From an uncultured Eubacteriales bacterium (GTDB lineage Bacteria > Bacillota > Clostridia > Christensenellales > Aristaeellaceae), in assembly GCA_902789795.1 (NCBI GenBank), contig CADAPM010000008.1:1-64000 (forward strand): a stretch of DNA of 64,000 nt, written 5' to 3'. Below are positions 42,964 to 50,814 of this stretch, piece by piece (positions within the stretch are counted from its first letter, which is position 1; each line of letters begins with the position of its first letter). Below the pieces are notes generated by a model. That model saw nothing but the letters and a program-made list of their open reading frames with translations. It was not told the origin of the DNA and ran no database searches. A program made the translations under genes and the position numbers.

Positions 42964-44829
<1,866 letters not shown>

Positions 44830-44831
44830 AA

Positions 44832-44905
44832 GGTAGGAAGTAGGAGTTAGGAAGTAGGAAGTAATGATTGTTTGAGTGTGAAGTGTGGAGAGTGAAGAGT
44901 GGAGT
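44832..44905. repeat. TAGGAAG dispersed repeat, half copy
   Basis: Repeated GTAGGAAGTAGGAGTTAGGA units run into TTTGAGTGTGAAGTGTGGAG. The same two blocks recur in inverted orientation at 50717-50780. Confidence 0.7.
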
Positions 44906-44940: not shown

Positions 44941-45101
44941 ATTTTGATGCCGCCGGACTGGACGGTTGGACGGGTGAAAAGGGTACATTCAATTCGGCGC
45001 TATATGTTTAACCGCACACGGGATGGACACTGGCCCCGGCATGCTTTCATATTATCGCCAAAGCTCAACAAACAAAAGAACCGACATCTCGGATATCGCC
45101 G
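44941..45101. other. Intergenic spacer, no gene seen
   Basis: Between the glmS terminator and the left inverted repeat. No credible ribosome site or family-like reading frame is visible. Confidence 0.5.
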
Positions 45102-45321
45102 TAGGGGCGGATCACCCGATCCGCCCGCCCAGTTGGCGTAAAGACCGTTTATGAAAGAAGCAGAATTACATTCACTATCCGGATTGAATTTACGCGTAAC
45201 AGGACGGGCGGATCGGGTGATCCGCCCCTACGATGTGATCCAACGCGGCTTTACGCTTGCTTGTCGGCTTTTGATGTAAATTGAGCAACAACACATAACA
45301 AAAAAAGGAAGCATCACCCCC
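45102..45321. repeat. Left ~220-bp inverted repeat of the accessory island
   Basis: Inverted, about 97% identical copy of 50219-50438 (roughly five substitutions). The outer ~130 bp is itself MITE-like, with GTAGGGGCGGATCACCCGAT at one end and its complement near 45212-45231. Homology continues about 87 bp further inward and stops abruptly at the outer GTAGGGG. Confidence 0.88.
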
Positions 45322-45340
45322 CTTTCACGAATTCACCCAA

Positions 45341-45395
45341 AATGATACCTTTTTGATAGCAATTTGATAGCGTTTTGCACCTGTTTTGATCCTAC
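45341..45395. repeat. 11-bp phased repeat array (iteron-like)
   Basis: Five consecutive 11-bp units start at 45341, 45352, 45363, 45374 and 45385: AATGATACCTT, TTTGATAGCAA, TTTGATAGCGT, TTTGCACCTGT, TTTGATCCTAC. The second and third are nearly identical, the others degenerate. A -10-like TATACT follows at 45416. The location directly before primase and helicase genes suggests a replication-initiator or regulator site. Confidence 0.6.
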
Positions 45396-45505
45396 CGCCC
45401 CCTATTATTTGGTGCTATACTATCACCATCAGATCCGTCCGGCCACCCGGGCGGGTCGTTTATTTTGAAAGGAGGAGAAAACCAGTTAGGAATGAGGAGT
45501 AAAAA

Positions 45506-45619
45506 AGTAGGAAGTAGGAGTTAGGAAGTAGGAAGTAATTAGTGTTTTTGCCGCGGCGTTTGCAGCGCCATGTGCAGGAGTAGAATTACTTCCTACTTTC
45601 TACTTCCTCCTTCCTACCT
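45506..45619. repeat. TAGGAAG dispersed palindromic repeat, full copy (reverse core)
   Basis: Arms of GTAGGAAG units and their complement flank a core CGGCGTTTGCAGCGCC. The core is in the opposite orientation to the copies at 46265, 56708 and 61742. Confidence 0.75.
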
Positions 45620-45668
45620 TGCCCGCCTCCTCACTCCTGATCTTCCTCCTCCCGAAAGGAGTGATCCC

Positions 45669-46238
45669 TTGTCCCAAATCTTTTCCCTGGTCCGTTCGTC
45701 GGTGACCGCGCGTCAGGCGGCGGAGCTGTACGGACTGAAGGTGGGGCGGAACGGCATGGTTTGCTGTCCGTTCCACGATGACAAGCGCCCGTCCATGAAG
45801 GTGGACGAGCGCTATTATTGTTTCGGGTGCCATGAGACGGGCAGCGTGATCGACCTGACGGCGAAGCTGTTCGGCCTGACGCCCCTGGAGGCCGCGCGCA
45901 AGCTGGCCGCGGACTTCCTCCTGGACCCGGACGCGCCGCCGCCCGCCCGCGCCGCGCCGACGAAATGGCAGCTCGAAGCCCGTAACCGCGACCTGGAGGA
46001 CCGCTGCCTGCGCGTGCTCACCCGCGAGGAGCGCCGGCTCAAGCAGCAAAAGGCCGCCCTCGCCCCCGCGACGCCCGACCAGGACTTCCCCCCGGACTAC
46101 GCCGCCGTCTGCCGCCGCCTGCTGGGCATCAGCCACTGGCTGGACCTGCTCTGCGCCCCAGACGCAGACACAAGACGGGACACGGCGGAAGCGCTGATTA
46201 GGAGCGGAGCAATAGAAAGAATGGAGAAGAGCGCGTGA
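45669..46238 (+). CDS. CHC2 zinc-finger (DNA primase-type) protein
   Basis: A 189-residue protein whose residues about 20-80 match the DnaG-type CHC2 zinc-binding domain: CCPFHDDKRPSMKVDE followed by YYCFGCHETGSVIDL. It lacks the TOPRIM catalytic domain, and the C-terminal half (KWQLEARNRDLEDRCLRVL) is helical and charged. Such split primase zinc fingers accompany P4/D5-type helicases in phages, satellites and plasmids, as here. The TTG at 45669 with AAGGAG 7 nt upstream is the likely start; earlier in-frame codons fall inside the palindromic repeat. It is presumably part of the island's replication module (inference). Confidence 0.82.
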   Translation: MSQIFSLVRSSVTARQAAELYGLKVGRNGMVCCPFHDDKRPSMKVDERYYCFGCHETGSVIDLTAKLFGLTPLEAARKLAADFLLDPDAPPPARAAPTKWQLEARNRDLEDRCLRVLTREERRLKQQKAALAPATPDQDFPPDYAAVCRRLLGISHWLDLLCAPDADTRRDTAEALIRSGAIERMEKSA

Positions 46239-46264
46239 TTCAGGGTGAAGGGAGATAGTCAGGG

Positions 46265-46376
46265 AGGAAGTAGGAAGTAGAAAGTAGGAAGTAATTCTGC
46301 TCCTGCGCACGGCGCTGCAAACGCCACCGCAAAAACATTAATTGCTTCCTACTTCCTAACTCCTAACTCCTACCTT
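46265..46376. repeat. TAGGAAG dispersed palindromic repeat, full copy
   Basis: GTAGGAAG arms with core GGCGCTGCAAACGCC between the CHC2 and helicase genes. Outer GGGTGAAGG/CCTTCACCCTT arms lie just beyond it on both sides. Confidence 0.75.
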
Positions 46377-46421
46377 AAACCTTCACCCTTCACCCTAACA
46401 ACAAAGGAGGTATCCCCACCC

Positions 46422-47715
46422 ATGCCATCCCCCAACCCAAATTGGCCTTCCTGGTTCAACGGGTCCCGGATCAATGAGATCGAGTTTTGCCGGGAATTCA
46501 TTGCACAACACCGTCTCGCGTATGCGGAGGGTGCTTTTTTTACGCCGAAAGGGCGCGTGAACGACGAGGCGGCCATCCGCAAGGCAATTTTCCGGCTGGT
46601 GGAGCCGCTGATCACCACCAACGTGACCCAGCGCATCAGCAGCCTGATCGACCTGATGCGGATCGCGGCGGCCACGGATATGCTGGTCCCGCAGACGGAC
46701 CGCATCCATTTATCCAACGGCACGCTCTACCTGGACGGGCGCTTCGAGCCCGGGCAGGACCAGATCGTGCGCTCCCGCTTCCCCATCCCCTATCTCCCAG
46801 ACGCGCCCAAGCCCGCCCTGTGGCTCAACTTCCTCTCCGAACTGCTCTATGAGGAGGACATCCCCACCCTGCAGGAAATACATCGGCTACTGCCTGATCC
46901 CCAGCAACAAGGGCCAGCGCATGATGGTGATCAAGGGCCGGGGCGGCGAGGGCAAGAGCGTGGTGGGCGCGGTGCTCGCCCGCCTGTTCGGCCCCAACAT
47001 GAAGGACGGCTCCGTGGGCAAGATCTCGGAAAACCGCTTCGCCCGCGCGGACCTGGAAAACATCCTGCTGATGGTGGACGACGACATGCAGATGGAGGCC
47101 CTGAAGCAGACCAACTACGTGAAAAGCCTGGTCACCGCCCAGGGCCTGATGGACCTCGAAAAGAAGGGCAAGCAGAGCTACCAGGGCTGGCTGTTCGCGC
47201 GCATCCTCGCCTTTTCCAACGGCGACCTGCAAAGCCTGTACGACCGCAGCGACGGCTTCTACCGCCGCCAGCTGATCCTGGAGACCCGCGAGCGCCGCGC
47301 CGACCGCAAGGACGAGCCTGACCTCGCCGACTGGATGACCAACGAGCTTCCCGGCATCTTCAACTGGGCCTTCGCGGGCCTGCAGCGCCTGTTCAGCAAC
47401 AACTGGCGCTTTACCGAGAGCGCCCGCGCCCGGAAAAACCGCGAGACCGTCCGGAAAGACGCCAACAACGTGCTGGAGTTTCTGGAGGCGGCTGATTATA
47501 TCTGCCTCGCCCCGGAAAAGTCCATCAGCTCCAAAGCGCTCTACATGAAATACTGCGGCTGGTGCGACGATAACGCCTACGACGCCCTCCGGCAGCGCTC
47601 TTTCAGCGAGTACCTGATCGCCAACCAAGCCAAGTACGGCATAGAGATCGACACTCACCACATCCTTCCGTCCGGTCAGCGGGTGCGGGGATTCAAGGGC
47701 ATCGGTCTGCCGTAA
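46422..47715 (+). pseudogene. P4/D5-family SF3 helicase, single-base frameshift
   Basis: Phage/plasmid primase-helicase C-terminal type (SF3), about 430 residues if read through. The first part (MPSPNPNWPSWF ... FLSELLYEEDIPTLQE) is in one frame. The ATPase part continues from YIGYCLIPSNKGQRMMVIKG in the +1 frame. An extra A in GGAAATAC at 46876-46878 would explain the shift. The SF3 motifs are intact: Walker A KGRGGEGKSVVG, Walker B NILLMVDDDMQ and sensor FSNGDLQSLYDR, followed by a C-terminal winged-helix-like region. It could be a recently broken gene, a sequencing error or programmed +1 frameshifting. AAAGGAGG precedes the ATG. It would unwind DNA for replication of the element. Confidence 0.8.
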
Positions 47716-47767
47716 CAACAAACACTATTAAATTGGGCACAGCCCGCAAATCGAAAGGAGAAACACC

Positions 47768-48124
47768 ATGAAAGCAGATATCACGGAAAGGGAAGCTATG
47801 AGAAGAGACGCCATGAAAAGGGACACCAACTACAGGATCAGTAAAGAACACAGCCAGATCGTCAGGAGCACTTACCCCATGCGGGAAGATATCACGATCA
47901 AAGCATCCATTTTCAACGATTCCTTCAGGCTGCACATGGATCAGCTGAACAGGGCTTTTCCCGGCCGCAGCACCATTCCCGTGCCCATGACCAAGGAGAA
48001 GTACGCGCAGGCCTGTGCGGTGGACGTATGCCTGATGACTCAGCGCCTGTACGATTCGATCATGCAGAAGGCCGCCGCACGTGCAGTATGTACAGAAGAG
48101 CATGACTGGGAGGAAGATGAATGA
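47768..48124 (+). CDS. Hypothetical protein of the island (118 aa)
   Basis: A 118-residue, soluble, charged protein with AAAGGAG 7 nt before the ATG. No family is recognised. The N-terminus is rich in Arg, Asp and Met (TEREAMRRDAMKRDTNYR); the middle has VPMTKEKYAQACAVDVC and the tail is acidic. The pattern TKE-x-YA-x-C recurs in the next small ORF (KMTKEDYAEFIACSYC), so the two may be related. It overlaps that ORF by ATGA, implying coupled translation. Confidence 0.65.
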   Translation: MKADITEREAMRRDAMKRDTNYRISKEHSQIVRSTYPMREDITIKASIFNDSFRLHMDQLNRAFPGRSTIPVPMTKEKYAQACAVDVCLMTQRLYDSIMQKAAARAVCTEEHDWEEDE

Positions 48125-48324
48125 TGAACGACACCATTCAGTTTGACCGCAAAAATTATGAGCAGATGTACGCCTCCGCCATGAAGGACATCCTGAAGAA
48201 ATACCCCTATCACAAATTCGTCTATATCAAGATGACCAAGGAAGACTACGCGGAATTCATTGCCTGCTCCTACTGCAAGAAGCTGAACGACCTGATCGGC
48301 AATCCGCTGGAAACTGCTGAGTAA
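48121..48324 (+). CDS. Hypothetical protein of the island (67 aa)
   Basis: A 67-residue protein beginning at an ATG that overlaps the preceding stop, with GGGAGG 7 nt upstream. It shares the motif MTKEDYAEFIAC with the upstream protein. No known family is recognised. A small partner of the same replication or accessory unit is the best guess. Confidence 0.6.
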   Translation: MMNDTIQFDRKNYEQMYASAMKDILKKYPYHKFVYIKMTKEDYAEFIACSYCKKLNDLIGNPLETAE

Positions 48325-48332
48325 CTGAAAAC

Positions 48333-48487
48333 CATCCGTGCGTGCCAACGTGCGCACGGATCTTTTCATTTTTGGCACGCTTTGTTTTCAGTCGTTTGTG
48401 CGTTGCATTCCTGTTTTATGTACTATATGGTTTGTTTCATTTACCATTTATTGCGGTTAGCACGTCGGCACGGATGCACGGATGTTT
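48333..48487. mobile_element. CCGTGC inverted-repeat element, copy A
   Basis: A ~155-bp non-coding element with ends CATCCGTGCGTGCC and GGCACGGATGCACGGATG. A diverged, inverted second copy lies at 49797-49976; shared interior marks include GTTTTCAGTC/GTTTTCGGTC and TATGTACTATATGG/TATGTACTATACGG. Confidence 0.65.
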
Positions 48488-48517
48488 TTCAAGTCGCTCA
48501 AAGAAGCCCCTCGCCCC

Positions 48518-48546
48518 TTGTACCTTTTTTAGGATTATAGTATAAT
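48518..48546 (+). promoter_or_regulatory. Promoter of the membrane peptide/LRR cargo
   Basis: TTGTAC and TATAAT separated by exactly 17 bp, 26 bp before the 39-residue membrane peptide. Confidence 0.7.
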
Positions 48547-48572
48547 CATAGAGTAAAAGGAGGACTTGGGTA

Positions 48573-48692
48573 ATGGCTGAGAGAAAGTATAATCGAACGC
48601 TTTCCATCGCATTTATTGTGGGAATTATTGGGTTTTTATTATCTATTCTCATAACAAGAATAATGGTTAATAATATTAAGGAATGTCAATAA
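48573..48692 (+). CDS. Small single-pass membrane peptide (39 aa)
   Basis: ATG 48573 with AGGAGG upstream opens a 39-residue frame: a charged N-terminus (MAERKYNR), one membrane helix (SIAFIVGIIGFLLSILI) and a short polar tail. It has its own strong promoter. The frame stops exactly where a second reading frame with protein-like sequence begins, so it may instead be the first part of an ~83-residue frameshifted gene. A type I toxin-like peptide is an alternative; nothing in the sequence decides. Confidence 0.5.
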   Translation: MAERKYNRTLSIAFIVGIIGFLLSILITRIMVNNIKECQ

Positions 48693-48822
48693 GGTTCTAT
48701 TTATCAATGGTGGTTTTGCGCTGATCCAAATCAAAGGTGAGAATGGGCGAATCAATCTTAGAGAGAGCAGAATTTTCGCAACAAAAGAAGAAGTTATAGC
48801 AAGCGCGAAAAGAAACATCTAG
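48691..48822 (+). pseudogene. Coding-like fragment without start
   Basis: A frame of about 44 codons (KVLFINGGFALIQIKGENGR then INLRESRIFATKEEVIAS, then a stop) lacks a start codon and a ribosome site. It lies +1 relative to the membrane peptide and overlaps its stop. A one-base indel near 48688 would join the two. I do not recognise a family. Confidence 0.35.
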
Positions 48823-48841
48823 GATGAAAGGAGAAATCTCA

Positions 48842-49585
48842 ATGCGTAAACTTATTAGGCTATTTATCATTCTGTTTGCGTTGCTGATCTCATTTTCCGC
48901 AGTTGCTGACACGCTTGATGAATTACTTGTTCAGCGCGACACACTGTTAACGCAATTGTCTGCTGTTAACGAACAAATTGCTCAGATTAATAAGACCTCG
49001 TCTCCCGAAGGTAGCCTTGGTAAGATTTGTGATGTTTTCCCTGATGAAGTAATGGCTCTGACTGTTCGTGATGCGTGCGGTAAATTTAGCATTCAGCAGG
49101 AGGTAACAGCAGAAGAATTAGCCAATGTAAAGAGTTTAGAACCAGCGGCTGGTCAAAAGATCACAAATCTTATGGGCATTGGCTATCTGACAGGCTTAAC
49201 CAGCATTCGGCTTGACTGGTATAGGGGTGAATTCGAAGAGTTTCCCGACGAGATGAAAAACTGTAAAAAGCTTATGTTCATTGATGTTCAGTCGACAGGA
49301 TTAAAACGTTTGCCTGATTGGATCGGTGATTTAACAGAACTATATAGATTAAATATAAGTGGCAATGAAATTGATTATCTCCCTGATTCCCTATGCAGCC
49401 TAGTCAAGTTGGGTGATTTGAATATCAGGTCGAATAAAAGCATCACAAAACTGCCCGAAAATATAGGTAATCTCGTGTCACTTAAAGAACTAGATATTTC
49501 ATACACAGGGATCACAACACTACCAGACAGCATCTATGCATTAGATTTTCGCGAGTTGAAGATGGAAGGCCTTCCAATCAAATGA
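48842..49585 (+). CDS. Secreted leucine-rich-repeat protein
   Basis: A 247-residue exported protein with a signal peptide (LIRLFIILFALLISFSAVA) and then a short coiled-coil stretch (LDELLVQRDTLLTQLSAVNE). About five to six LRRs of roughly 23 residues follow (LYRLNISGNEIDYLPDSLCS; LKELDISYTGITTLPDSIYA). It resembles bacterial LRR proteins that bind other proteins. ATG 48842 has AAAGGAG 8 nt upstream. Its base composition is clearly more AT-rich than the core genes, and it lies between inverted copies of the CCGTGC element, which points to imported cargo. The role is unknown. Confidence 0.75.
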   Translation: MRKLIRLFIILFALLISFSAVADTLDELLVQRDTLLTQLSAVNEQIAQINKTSSPEGSLGKICDVFPDEVMALTVRDACGKFSIQQEVTAEELANVKSLEPAAGQKITNLMGIGYLTGLTSIRLDWYRGEFEEFPDEMKNCKKLMFIDVQSTGLKRLPDWIGDLTELYRLNISGNEIDYLPDSLCSLVKLGDLNIRSNKSITKLPENIGNLVSLKELDISYTGITTLPDSIYALDFRELKMEGLPIK

Positions 49586-49698
49586 TCAATTCGACATAGT
49601 TTTTGCAAAGAGCAAGTGGAGCAAGATTTAGTGTAATTTATTGTCTGCTCTCAGGTGGATGTTTCCACCTCATACAAACCTACGAGCGCTAGAATGAA

Positions 49699-49733
49699 AA
49701 TGCTCTGTCAATTTGACAGAGCATTTCTTTTAT
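49699..49733 (+). terminator. Terminator after the LRR gene
   Basis: AATGCTCTGTCA and TGACAGAGCATT form a 12-bp stem followed by TCTTTTAT. Confidence 0.8.
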
Positions 49734-49796
49734 ATCATTAATTTGATGTACTTATAACTCTACCGAATGGTTGAATAATACTATTATCCGGGGAGT

Positions 49797-49976
49797 AACC
49801 CAAAAAACATCCGTGCATCCGTGCCAATGTGCAGCCTGCAATATATGGCATATTTGTTATGCCGTATAGTACATATAATCGCAGTATATCACCCGCATGA
49901 CCGAAAACGAAGCGTGTCGGATCGCGTGCGAAGCGTGCCGGCACATTGGCACGCACGCACGGATGTTTTTCAGTTG
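49797..49976. mobile_element. CCGTGC inverted-repeat element, copy B (inverted)
   Basis: A ~180-bp element with ends ACATCCGTGCATCCGTGCC and GGCACGCACGCACGGATG, in opposite orientation to copy A at 48333-48487. No reading frame is supported. Confidence 0.65.
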
Positions 49977-50059
49977 CCCGGCAGAAAAAACACTATGGCG
50001 CCAATCCTTATAATGGAAGCAGAATGATCTTGTTTGTTGACCGTAGAACAACAGTTGTA

Positions 50060-50201
50060 TCGCGCACGCACCGCGGGCGCCAGCGCCTCACGCACCGCGC
50101 ACGAGATGAACGATTCTTCGCTCGCCCTCTAAATGGGGAGAGGGCGGTTGAATCGCGCGCGCACCGCGGGTGCAAGCACCTCACGCACCGCGCACGACAT
50201 G
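50060..50201. repeat. Pair of ~49-bp GC-rich direct repeats
   Basis: 50060-50108 and 50153-50201 share the pattern TCGCGCxCGCACCGCGGG ... CCTCACGCACCGCGCACGA, separated by GATTCTTCGCTCGCC-type sequence. Related GAAGAATCT/TCATTCTGAG motifs appear again near 50536-50585. This is non-coding repeat debris. Confidence 0.55.
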
Positions 50202-50218
50202 CTCAGAATGACAGCGGG

Positions 50219-50438
50219 GGATGGTGCTTCCTTTTTTTGTTATGTGTTGTTGCTCAATTTACATCAAAAGCCGACAAGCAAGCGTAAAGCTGCGTTGGAT
50301 CACATCGTAGGGGCGGATCACCCGATCCGCCCGTCCTGTTACGCGTAAATTCGATCCGGATAGTGAATGCAATTCTGCTTCCTTCATAAACGGTCTTTAC
50401 GCCAACTGGGCGGGCGGATCGGGTGATCCGCCCCTACA
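50219..50438. repeat. Right ~220-bp inverted repeat of the accessory island
   Basis: Inverted near-identical copy of 45102-45321, see the left copy. With it, the repeats delimit a 5337-bp segment. No obvious target-site duplication is seen at the outer ends. Confidence 0.88.
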
Positions 50439-50814
50439 GGGATAACTGAGGTTTTCCCGCCCTTTGTTTGTTGGGTTTTAGCGTGAGAATAAACGCAAAG
50501 TGTTCAAATAACAATGGAAAAAACAACAACTGCTGTCATTCTGAGCAACCGCCCCCACGCCTGGGCGGTTAGCGAAGAATCTGTTCTGTAGCAAACCTAA
50601 GTCAACACGGGCAGAGTAAAACAAAAAACGTATAGCCCCGAATGGAAGAAACCGCGCTCCCGCGCGGTTTCAACCTGAACTTATCACTTATCTCTTATCA
50701 CTTATCACTTATCTCATTCCTAACTCCTACTTCCTACTTCCTAACTCCACTCTCCACTCTTCACACTTCACACTCAAACAAAACTCCCTCCCTCCTCCTT
50801 CCTCCCTGAAAAAG
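50439..50814. other. Intergenic repeat debris, no gene
   Basis: Holds a GAAGAATCTG-type palindromic remnant (50536-50590), a GAAACCGCG hairpin matching the glmS terminator (50648-50671), CTTATCACTTAT tandem units (50688-50714) and an inverted half copy of the TAGGAAG repeat (50717-50780). Confidence 0.55.

What the first reader, a model, noticed from the sequence alone, without database searches (positions are those of the whole stretch)
45102..50438. 5.3-kb accessory island bounded by ~220-bp near-identical inverted repeats
The outer segments 45102-45321 and 50219-50438 are inverted copies with roughly five differences. Homology ends sharply at GTAGGGG on both outer sides. Between them lie an 11-bp repeat array, a CHC2 primase zinc finger, a P4/D5 SF3 helicase, paired small ORFs, and low-GC cargo. 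Replication genes without integrase or transposase inside a long inverted repeat do not match a standard IS, ICE or prophage. It could be a phage satellite, a defective replicon, or a unit mobilised in trans through its repeat ends.
Basis: partly seen in the sequence, partly recalled or inferred. Interest (0 to 1): 0.75.

Follow-up and report, generated by a model that had tools for sequence, protein, structure and literature searches.

The report
Scattered phage genes sharing one switch
What looked like a small mobile island is one of several phage-type gene blocks scattered over the chromosome of an uncultured gut bacterium, each behind the same kind of promoter, and together they look like a domesticated virus that may move bacterial DNA between cells.

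Summary
The inverted repeats exist (6 mismatches in 220), but they are copies of an interspersed repeat (31 match rows at 21 places in this genome), and a third copy matches straight through the claimed boundary. The real landmark lies just inward of the left arm: five 11-bp iterons fused to a promoter and a hairpin leader, upstream of primase and helicase. The same arrangement precedes four other own loci (lone helicase; DnaD-like loader; tail genes; terminase-portal-capsid-holin-endolysin); six integrase queries hit none of them. A composite motif at 0 mismatches finds 11 sites in 308 family genomes, all in this genus, control 0, all 11 before phage- or element-type genes; two sites were unseen predictions and both held. 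Iterons are more alike within than between species; head genes are under purifying selection. Best reading: the island is the replication locus, partly decayed here, of a dispersed phage-derived regulon, most likely a gene transfer agent resembling FpGTA of Faecalibacterium. Particles and DNA transfer are untested; positions are not conserved, one genus genome lacks it, and two viral contigs have 78-79% identical capsids.

The parts
45101..45320 (+). left arm of the inverted repeat: a 131-bp MITE-like unit (45101-45231, with about 34-bp terminal inverted repeats GTAGGGGCGG...CCGCCCCTAC) plus about 90 bp
   Evidence: interspersed repeat, not an element end
50218..50437 (-). right arm of the inverted repeat, same family
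   Evidence: homology to the C13 copy runs through both ends
45342..45391 (+). array of five 11-bp iterons (AAAATGATACC TTTTTGATAGC AATTTGATAGC GTTTTGCACCT GTTTTGATCCT), the shared regulatory array
45392..45421 (+). promoter: degenerate -35 region (CTACCG against CTTTACR elsewhere) and -10 TATACT at 45416-45421
   Evidence: inferred by comparison with the other arrays
45432..45466 (+). leader hairpin with U-rich tail (attenuator or terminator-like)
   Evidence: z -1.6; tail judged by eye
45570..46238 (+). CHC2 zinc-finger primase-like protein; homology to the G004 protein starts at residue 34, so the true start is probably near 45669
46422..46880 (+). N-terminal piece of the D5/DUF5906 SF3 helicase (first frame)
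46864..47715 (+). C-terminal piece of the same helicase (second frame) with the DUF5906/SF3 region
47768..48124 (+). small protein S118, distant paralogue of S67 (31% over 32 aa, E 1e-4)
48121..48324 (+). small protein S67; matches in 3 of 200 family genomes (own, G004, G002), each time behind the helicase
48824..49585 (+). leucine-rich-repeat protein with a signal-like N-terminus (by eye), between other repeat copies; probably not part of the system

Best explanation
The primase-helicase-small-ORF block is the replication locus of a phage-derived system whose genes are dispersed over at least five chromosomal loci in this genome and expressed together. Each locus has a tandem array of 11-bp iterons (inferred binding site of one trans-acting activator, not identified), overlapping a sigma-70-like promoter (CTTTACR, 17-18 bp, TANNNT at most sites), then a leader hairpin with a U-rich tail (inferred: anti-termination or attenuation). 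When switched on, the head locus (terminases, portal, scaffold, capsid, connector, holin, endolysin) and the tail locus (major tail protein in three other species, a 117-aa protein that is Dit-like by position only, and a 500-aa tail protein) would make small short-tailed particles and lyse the cell. Because the genes lie in separate loci with no integrase found, the particles could hardly carry the whole set and would package mainly host DNA: a gene transfer agent (GTA). The co-regulated primase-helicase and DnaD-like loader may amplify DNA before packaging (inferred). In this species the window locus is partly decayed (split helicase frame, weak -35), and a second helicase from another element lineage sits behind an intact copy of the promoter at C4. 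Shown: dispersal, shared regulatory architecture, phage or element origin of the genes, purifying selection on head genes. Inferred: co-activation, particle formation, DNA transfer, role of replication.
For: Motif: 11 exact composite sites in 5 of 308 family genomes, all in one genus, reversed-pattern control 0 in every genome; all 11 before phage- or element-type genes (contexts). The pattern was drawn from arrays seen before, including G007 C130 and G005 C40; the two unseen sites, G007 C154 and C26, precede TerS-TerL-portal and a DnaD-like protein. Arrays that the exact pattern misses: own C8 and C13, G002 C106, G004 C3, G003 C10. Iteron units are more alike within a species than between (0.73 against 0.60; 0 of 5000 label permutations, 15 arrays). 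Leader hairpin in 15 of 15 folds, U-rich tail by eye. Head genes: Terminase_3, SPP1 portal, capsid phrog_422, connector, holin, endolysin, scaffold phrog_172; tail: phrog_6616 and phrog_1194, major tail protein phrog_41. dN/dS TerL 0.22-0.39, portal 0.18-0.19, MCP 0.19-0.25, with dS in the range of three host genes. Six serine- and tyrosine-integrase queries hit none of 18 genus loci (290 kb, window included) and all 9 positive-control loci. Two helicases of different clades stand behind this type of array.
Against: Genomic position is not conserved: of the flanks compared only carB is shared, between own and G002, on opposite sides of the tail locus. G005 and G003 carry a second lineage (TerL 56% and 63% to own) although FeoB of G005 is 84% identical, so descent is not simply vertical. 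G001 (90% complete) has no capsid or tail match. Two IMG/VR contigs have an MCP 78-79% identical, closer than the capsids of G003 and G005 (58-64%), so capsid exchange with phages is recent. Selection is weaker outside the head: dN/dS 0.22-0.46 for the 500-aa tail protein, 0.38-0.74 for the 117-aa one, about 0.2-0.5 for helicase pieces. The replication part is patchy: split helicase here; truncated in G007 without an array (by eye); no CHC2 found beside the G002 helicase; no helicase match in G003, G005, G006. The tape-measure query hit none of these loci (one query); the rest of the genomes was not searched. Leader z-scores range from -0.4 to -6.3 and a consensus fold had an unfavourable covariation term. 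All genomes are draft MAGs; the frame split could be an assembly error. The activator is unknown. Particles and transfer were not tested.
Confidence: 0.65

Rival explanations
1. Remnants of one or several prophages or integrative mobilisable elements, broken up by recombination between the abundant interspersed repeats; the shared promoter is just ancestral phage sequence and nothing works now.
For: Elements with the same primase-helicase plus serine recombinase and often a relaxase exist; helicase frame split here; no major tail gene seen in the own tail locus; repeats crowd these loci; positions differ between species.
Against: Open head genes with dN/dS about 0.2 in own, G002 and G004; species-specific iterons kept in step across loci; two unseen loci predicted in G007; a helicase of another clade behind the same type of array.
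Confidence: 0.18
2. A phage satellite (for example capsid-forming PICI-like; that comparison is recalled, not tested) or helper-dependent phage that keeps its genes in several loci and is packaged by, or borrows tails from, a helper.
For: Primase-helicase plus head genes, no tape measure found nearby; phages with related capsids exist.
Against: No integrase found with six queries, genes on separate contigs with host genes beside them, own lysis and tail genes present.
Confidence: 0.1
3. One reading: a 5.3-kb unit mobilised in trans through its long inverted repeat ends.
For: Two near-identical arms around the gene set.
Against: Third copy runs through the boundary; repeats occur without the genes; four related loci lack the repeat pair, and homology to G004 starts inward of the arm, at about 45351.
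Confidence: 0.03
4. The 11-bp arrays are replication origins or partition sites of an integrated plasmid-like element, not a transcriptional switch.
For: Tandem iterons next to primase and helicase genes.
Against: The same arrays stand at fixed distance from a -35/-10 pair in front of terminase and tail genes.
Confidence: 0.04

Closest known systems
FpGTA of Faecalibacterium prausnitzii (Borodovich et al. 2026, PMC12946183; abstract, passages, sections 9 and 26 read)
   Same: Gut Clostridia; head genes (TerS without obvious DNA-binding domain, TerL, portal, scaffold, capsid) in one locus and further structural genes in another; holin and endolysin; probably short-tailed; the paper also reports GTA-like packaging in Christensenellaceae (3 of 25 events).
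   Different: FpGTA has two operons, lysis genes with the baseplate locus, and no replication genes by their account; no shared iteron promoter is described in the parts read. Homology to FpGTA proteins was not tested here. FpGTA particles were seen; ours are predicted.
Caulobacter CcGTA control by GafY/GafZ (Tran and Le 2024, PMC11150451; abstract and passages read)
   Same: Dedicated activation at a promoter plus anti-termination for the GTA cluster.
   Different: No 11-bp iterons or leader terminators of this kind in the passages read; relation of the genes not tested.
Bartonella BaGTA with run-off replication (PMC2697382, PMC3610622; search listings and starts of abstracts only, mechanism otherwise recalled)
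   Same: A GTA associated with replication.
   Different: Here an SF3 helicase, CHC2 protein and DnaD-like loader in separate loci under a common type of promoter; no gene comparison made.
Integrative mobilisable elements with CHC2 primase, D5/DUF5906 helicase, MobV-type relaxase and large serine recombinase (L073, L076, L071; L072 and L084 with parts; labels by eye and by cross-search)
   Same: Homologous helicase (66-69%) and primase.
   Different: Those carry a recombinase and usually a relaxase; neither was found at the own-genus loci.
Eggerthella phage PMBT5 (capsid 56%) and Marinitoga viruses (terminase about 46%)
   Same: Best listed deposited phages for capsid and terminase (for the capsid one more record at 60-80% was counted but not listed).
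   Different: Deposited phage genomes; no iteron array was looked for in them.

Membership tests
Gene transfer agent (definition of Kogay et al. 2022, PMC9662315, section 3 read) | caudoviricete-derived proteins form the particle | tested here: met
   sequence-similarity part only: terminase, portal, capsid, scaffold, connector, tail families; particles not seen
Gene transfer agent (definition of Kogay et al. 2022, PMC9662315, section 3 read) | mostly encapsidates random host DNA | not testable with these tools
   needs particle DNA
Gene transfer agent (definition of Kogay et al. 2022, PMC9662315, section 3 read) | genome fully endogenised, often across multiple loci | tested here: met
   own C4, C8, C13, C17, C25; G002 C1, C12, C106; G004 C3, C13, C52; G007 C26, C130, C154; draft assemblies
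Gene transfer agent (definition of Kogay et al. 2022, PMC9662315, section 3 read) | genome cannot be fully packaged for lack of head size | not testable with these tools
   head size unknown; separate loci make joint packaging unlikely
Gene transfer agent (definition of Kogay et al. 2022, PMC9662315, section 3 read) | mostly vertical inheritance, co-diversification with host | tested here: inconclusive
   host-like dS (three host genes) and own closest to G004 in head and helicase genes, not in the tail protein; positions not conserved (69), diverged lineage in G003/G005, absent from G001
Gene transfer agent (definition of Kogay et al. 2022, PMC9662315, section 3 read) | DNA delivered to other cells | not testable with these tools
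   experiment
Integrative mobilisable element | integrase and relaxase with the replication genes | tested here: not met
   0 of 5 own-genus helicase loci (L020-L024) with LSR or MobV hit, against 6 and 9 (3 weak) of all 25 loci searched; window itself without integrase hit, not searched for MobV
Prophage or phage satellite (PICI) | integrase and a contiguous excisable unit | tested here: not met
   three serine-recombinase and three tyrosine-integrase queries, 0 hits in 18 genus loci, positive controls 9 of 9; loci on different contigs; other integrase families not searched
Transposon or MITE-bounded unit | terminal inverted repeats that mark the ends | tested here: not met
   C13 copy homologous through the ends

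The most novel reading that the evidence does not exclude
A replication-coupled gene transfer agent of gut and rumen Clostridia: a domesticated phage split into head, tail, helicase-loader and primase-helicase loci, held together only by a fast-evolving 11-bp iteron array and its unknown activator, with anti-termination at every leader, and with helicases recruited more than once from unrelated mobile elements.
Probability: 0.4. Interest if true: 0.9.

Novelty: new variant of a known kind. Interest (0 to 1): 0.8.

Why it matters
GTA-like packaging of host DNA has been seen in gut Clostridia, including Christensenellaceae (PMC12946183), with candidate genes reported there for Faecalibacterium. 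A short regulatory motif that picks out several parts of a dispersed, unclustered phage-derived system gives a way to find such systems in genomes where the genes look like unrelated fragments, and makes the question of what controls GTAs outside Alphaproteobacteria testable. A co-regulated replication module would be unusual for a GTA.

Tried and rejected
Inverted repeat as element boundary: rejected. Empty-site comparison at glmS-feoB: not possible, since glmS and FeoB lie on different contigs in G002 and G005, glmS is followed by pyrG in G002 and G001 (by eye), and no FeoB match above 50% identity was found in G004 or G001. Defence system: PADLOC matched only the CHC2 zinc-finger region, to two DRT models (E 9e-15 and 1.3e-13), and nothing for the helicase, small ORFs or LRR protein. 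Known RNA family for the leaders: 10 loci searched, no match at gathering score. Consensus fold of five leaders: both hairpins predicted but covariation term unfavourable (+1.8; 2 of 17 pairs with a double change). The TTGAAAAWCCG 11-bp arrays of G001 and G006 (19 of 35 rows) were judged a different intergenic repeat, because neither phage genes nor a CTTTAC promoter follow in the loci viewed (G006 C66 not viewed), and were dropped. The first motif search hit only the own genome: too strict. The tblastx synteny output was noisy and cut and was used only for carB. IMG/VR searches: no relative of the tail protein, one 23% hit for TerL. Structure prediction was not used. Confidence lowered by 0.01 and the remnant rival raised by 0.01 for the first of these.
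Full report
1. The repeat. The arms pair in the register 45101-45320 / 50218-50437 with 6 mismatches of 220. The 235-bp left arm gives 31 match rows at 21 places in its own genome (ten places match on both strands); three are nearly full length: both arms and G000:C13:36931-37163. The left part is a 131-bp MITE-like unit with its own terminal inverted repeats. The C13 copy matches window 50052-50526 at 94% over 476 columns, that is, 166 bp inward and 89 bp outward of the right arm, and 45052-45327 at 91%. The repeat pair does not flank the related genes in G000:C4, G002, G004 or G007; G004 has a single 44-bp end. The region holds further repeat families: 116-bp inverted repeats around the primase gene, 114-bp ones around the LRR gene, and a 55-bp direct repeat. 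So the long inverted repeat is incidental.

2. The genes. CHC2 zinc finger (PF01807), a D5/DUF5906 helicase in two overlapping frames, two small paralogous proteins and an LRR protein. The C-terminal helicase piece has matches in 51 of 200 family genomes; most full-length ones lie in open frames of about 440-495 aa. In IMG/VR 15 loci encode relatives; in the six read, the helicase sits with a large serine recombinase, and in three also with a MobV-type relaxase (labels by eye). Of 25 loci searched, 6 had a serine-recombinase hit and 9 a MobV hit (3 weak); 0 of the 5 own-genus loci had either. Several others have tyrosine-integrase-like genes (by eye). In a tree of 49 sequences (66 found, identical ones dropped), window, G004 and G002 form a clade (100/98), while the second own helicase, at C4, falls in another clade (100/97); window and C4 have long branches.

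3. The shared array. Just inward of the left arm are five 11-bp iterons. TTGATAGSGTTTTGMACCTGTTTTGA at up to 3 mismatches occurs four times in the own genome and not in seven other genomes of the genus; reversed control 0. The four places are the window, the C4 helicase, a tail-gene cluster at C13 and, at C17, a terminase-portal-scaffold-capsid-connector-holin-endolysin cluster. A looser iteron pattern added C25, a DUF6291/DnaD-like protein, and arrays in front of the helicase and head clusters of G002 and G004. That call listed 35 rows; 19 rows from G001 and G006 belong to a different intergenic repeat. One reversed-control hit occurred, in G002.

4. Prediction. Aligning the arrays, including those seen by eye in G007 C130 and G005 C40, showed that the last iteron overlaps CTTTACR, 17 bp before TANNNT. 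The composite pattern at 0 mismatches gives 11 sites in 5 of 308 family genomes, all in the window's genus; reversed control 0 throughout. Nine sites were known; two, in G007, were new: C154 begins TerS, TerL and portal, and C26 a DnaD-like protein. All 11 stand in front of phage- or element-type genes. Further arrays that the exact pattern misses: window, own C13, G002 C106, G004 C3, and G003 with yet another unit (AAACGCTACAT type, by eye) before its head cluster. Among 127 other held relatives of capsid and helicase (1.66 Mb), only L151, L154 and L174, the G004, G005 and G002 contigs, match.

5. The array evolves as a set. Over 15 arrays (G003 not included), units of different loci are more alike within a species (0.73) than between (0.60); 0 of 5000 label permutations reached this. 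That is expected if one trans-acting protein binds all loci; duplication of the array within a species would also give it. The 15 leaders all fold into a hairpin, followed by a U-rich stretch (by eye), within 75 nt; z-scores range from -0.4 to -6.3. A consensus fold of five leaders gave an unfavourable covariation term. Anti-termination is therefore a hypothesis, suggested by CcGTA (PMC11150451).

6. Head and tail. Own, G002 and G004 share the head cluster with MCP 84-86% and TerL 80-84% identity. dN/dS is 0.22-0.39 for TerL (with G007), 0.18-0.19 for portal and 0.19-0.25 for MCP, 0.26-0.44 for connector and holin, 0.22-0.46 for the 500-aa tail protein, 0.38-0.74 for the 117-aa one, 0.32 for CHC2 and about 0.2-0.5 for the helicase pieces. 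dS of TerL, portal and MCP is 0.43-0.77, against 0.42 for carB, 0.65-0.89 for FeoB and 0.89-1.31 for glmS; only these host genes could be compared. The tail protein occurs in 6 of 8 genus genomes: 69-75% in G002, G004, G007 and 39-42% in G005, G006. G002, G004 and G007 have in addition a 134-aa major tail protein at the front of the tail locus (phrog_41, E 1e-7, 3e-6, 2e-4); it is not seen in the own locus, and the rest of the genome was not searched for it. In G005 head and tail genes form one continuous locus behind one array. The L240 tape-measure query hit none of the genus loci. The TerS candidates of about 80 aa scanned (own and G002) match no Pfam or PHROGs family, which recalls the TerS of FpGTA.

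7. Results against the reading. Flanking genes differ between species; only carB is shared by own and G002, on opposite sides of the tail locus. TerL of G005 and G003 is 56% and 63% identical to own, while FeoB is 84% (own to G005). G001 has no capsid or tail match. Two IMG/VR contigs have MCPs of 78-79% identity; the longer one, L240, is a tailed phage by its genes, and no other query from this system hit it. The best listed deposited phages are at 56% (MCP) and 47% (TerL), and IMG/VR gave no close TerL or tail-protein relative. The replication module is the least conserved part.

8. Integrases. Three serine-recombinase and three tyrosine-integrase queries gave no hit (E 1e-3) in 18 genus loci, 290 kb, including the 64-kb window and all five own loci; they hit 9 of 9 control loci. 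Other integrase families were not searched.

9. Placement. Of the six GTA features of Kogay et al. 2022 (PMC9662315, section 3), two are met (phage-derived proteins, by sequence only; multi-locus endogenisation), one is inconclusive (vertical inheritance) and three cannot be tested here. The closest known system is FpGTA (PMC12946183). I therefore say that it most likely works like a GTA, not that it is one. Six literature searches listed no description of an iteron-linked dispersed GTA-like regulon in Clostridia; only listings were seen apart from the three papers named, and the library holds open-licence papers only.

10. Names. The family probably includes Candidatus Limiplasma (L163 and a G159 match start within 3 bases of each other). 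The GTDB name of the family was not given by any search.

Noticed in passing
window 45101-45231 and 50307-50437; G000 C13:36931, C7:56792, C3:92276, C37:396: 131-bp MITE-like repeat with about 34-bp terminal inverted repeats that are themselves partly palindromic; single ends also scattered in the genome; no transposase was looked for.
   Followed up: partly
window 45504-45619 / 46261-46376 and 44829-44873, 50711-50761, 56725, 59386, 61760: AGGAAGTAGGA-type intergenic repeats, in inverted pairs around the primase gene and elsewhere in the window.
   Followed up: no
window 48376-48489 / 49803-49916 and G000 C7 (L012 6015-6924): CATCCGTGC-type inverted repeats around the LRR gene; a similar repeat set recurs at C7, where no phage gene was recognised by eye.
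   Followed up: partly
G006 C19, C66, C116, C145, C228, C312; G001 C92: Another 11-bp tandem array (TTGAAAAWCCG units), followed in several G006 copies by a GCTGATATATCAGC-like stretch, scattered in intergenic regions.
   Followed up: partly
L240 (IMGVR_UViG_3300033463_000892): Tailed phage with a capsid 78% identical to the C17 capsid, but no hit to the C17 terminase or portal: probably a capsid swap.
   Followed up: partly
G000 C13:30623-31230 (L011 624-1231): Possible toxin-antitoxin pair (by eye) between the tail locus and carA.
   Followed up: no
L071, L073, L076, L084: Compact mobilisable elements: D5 helicase, MobV-type relaxase, large serine recombinase, mostly with CHC2 primase; three of the four are listed as viral in IMG/VR.
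   Followed up: partly
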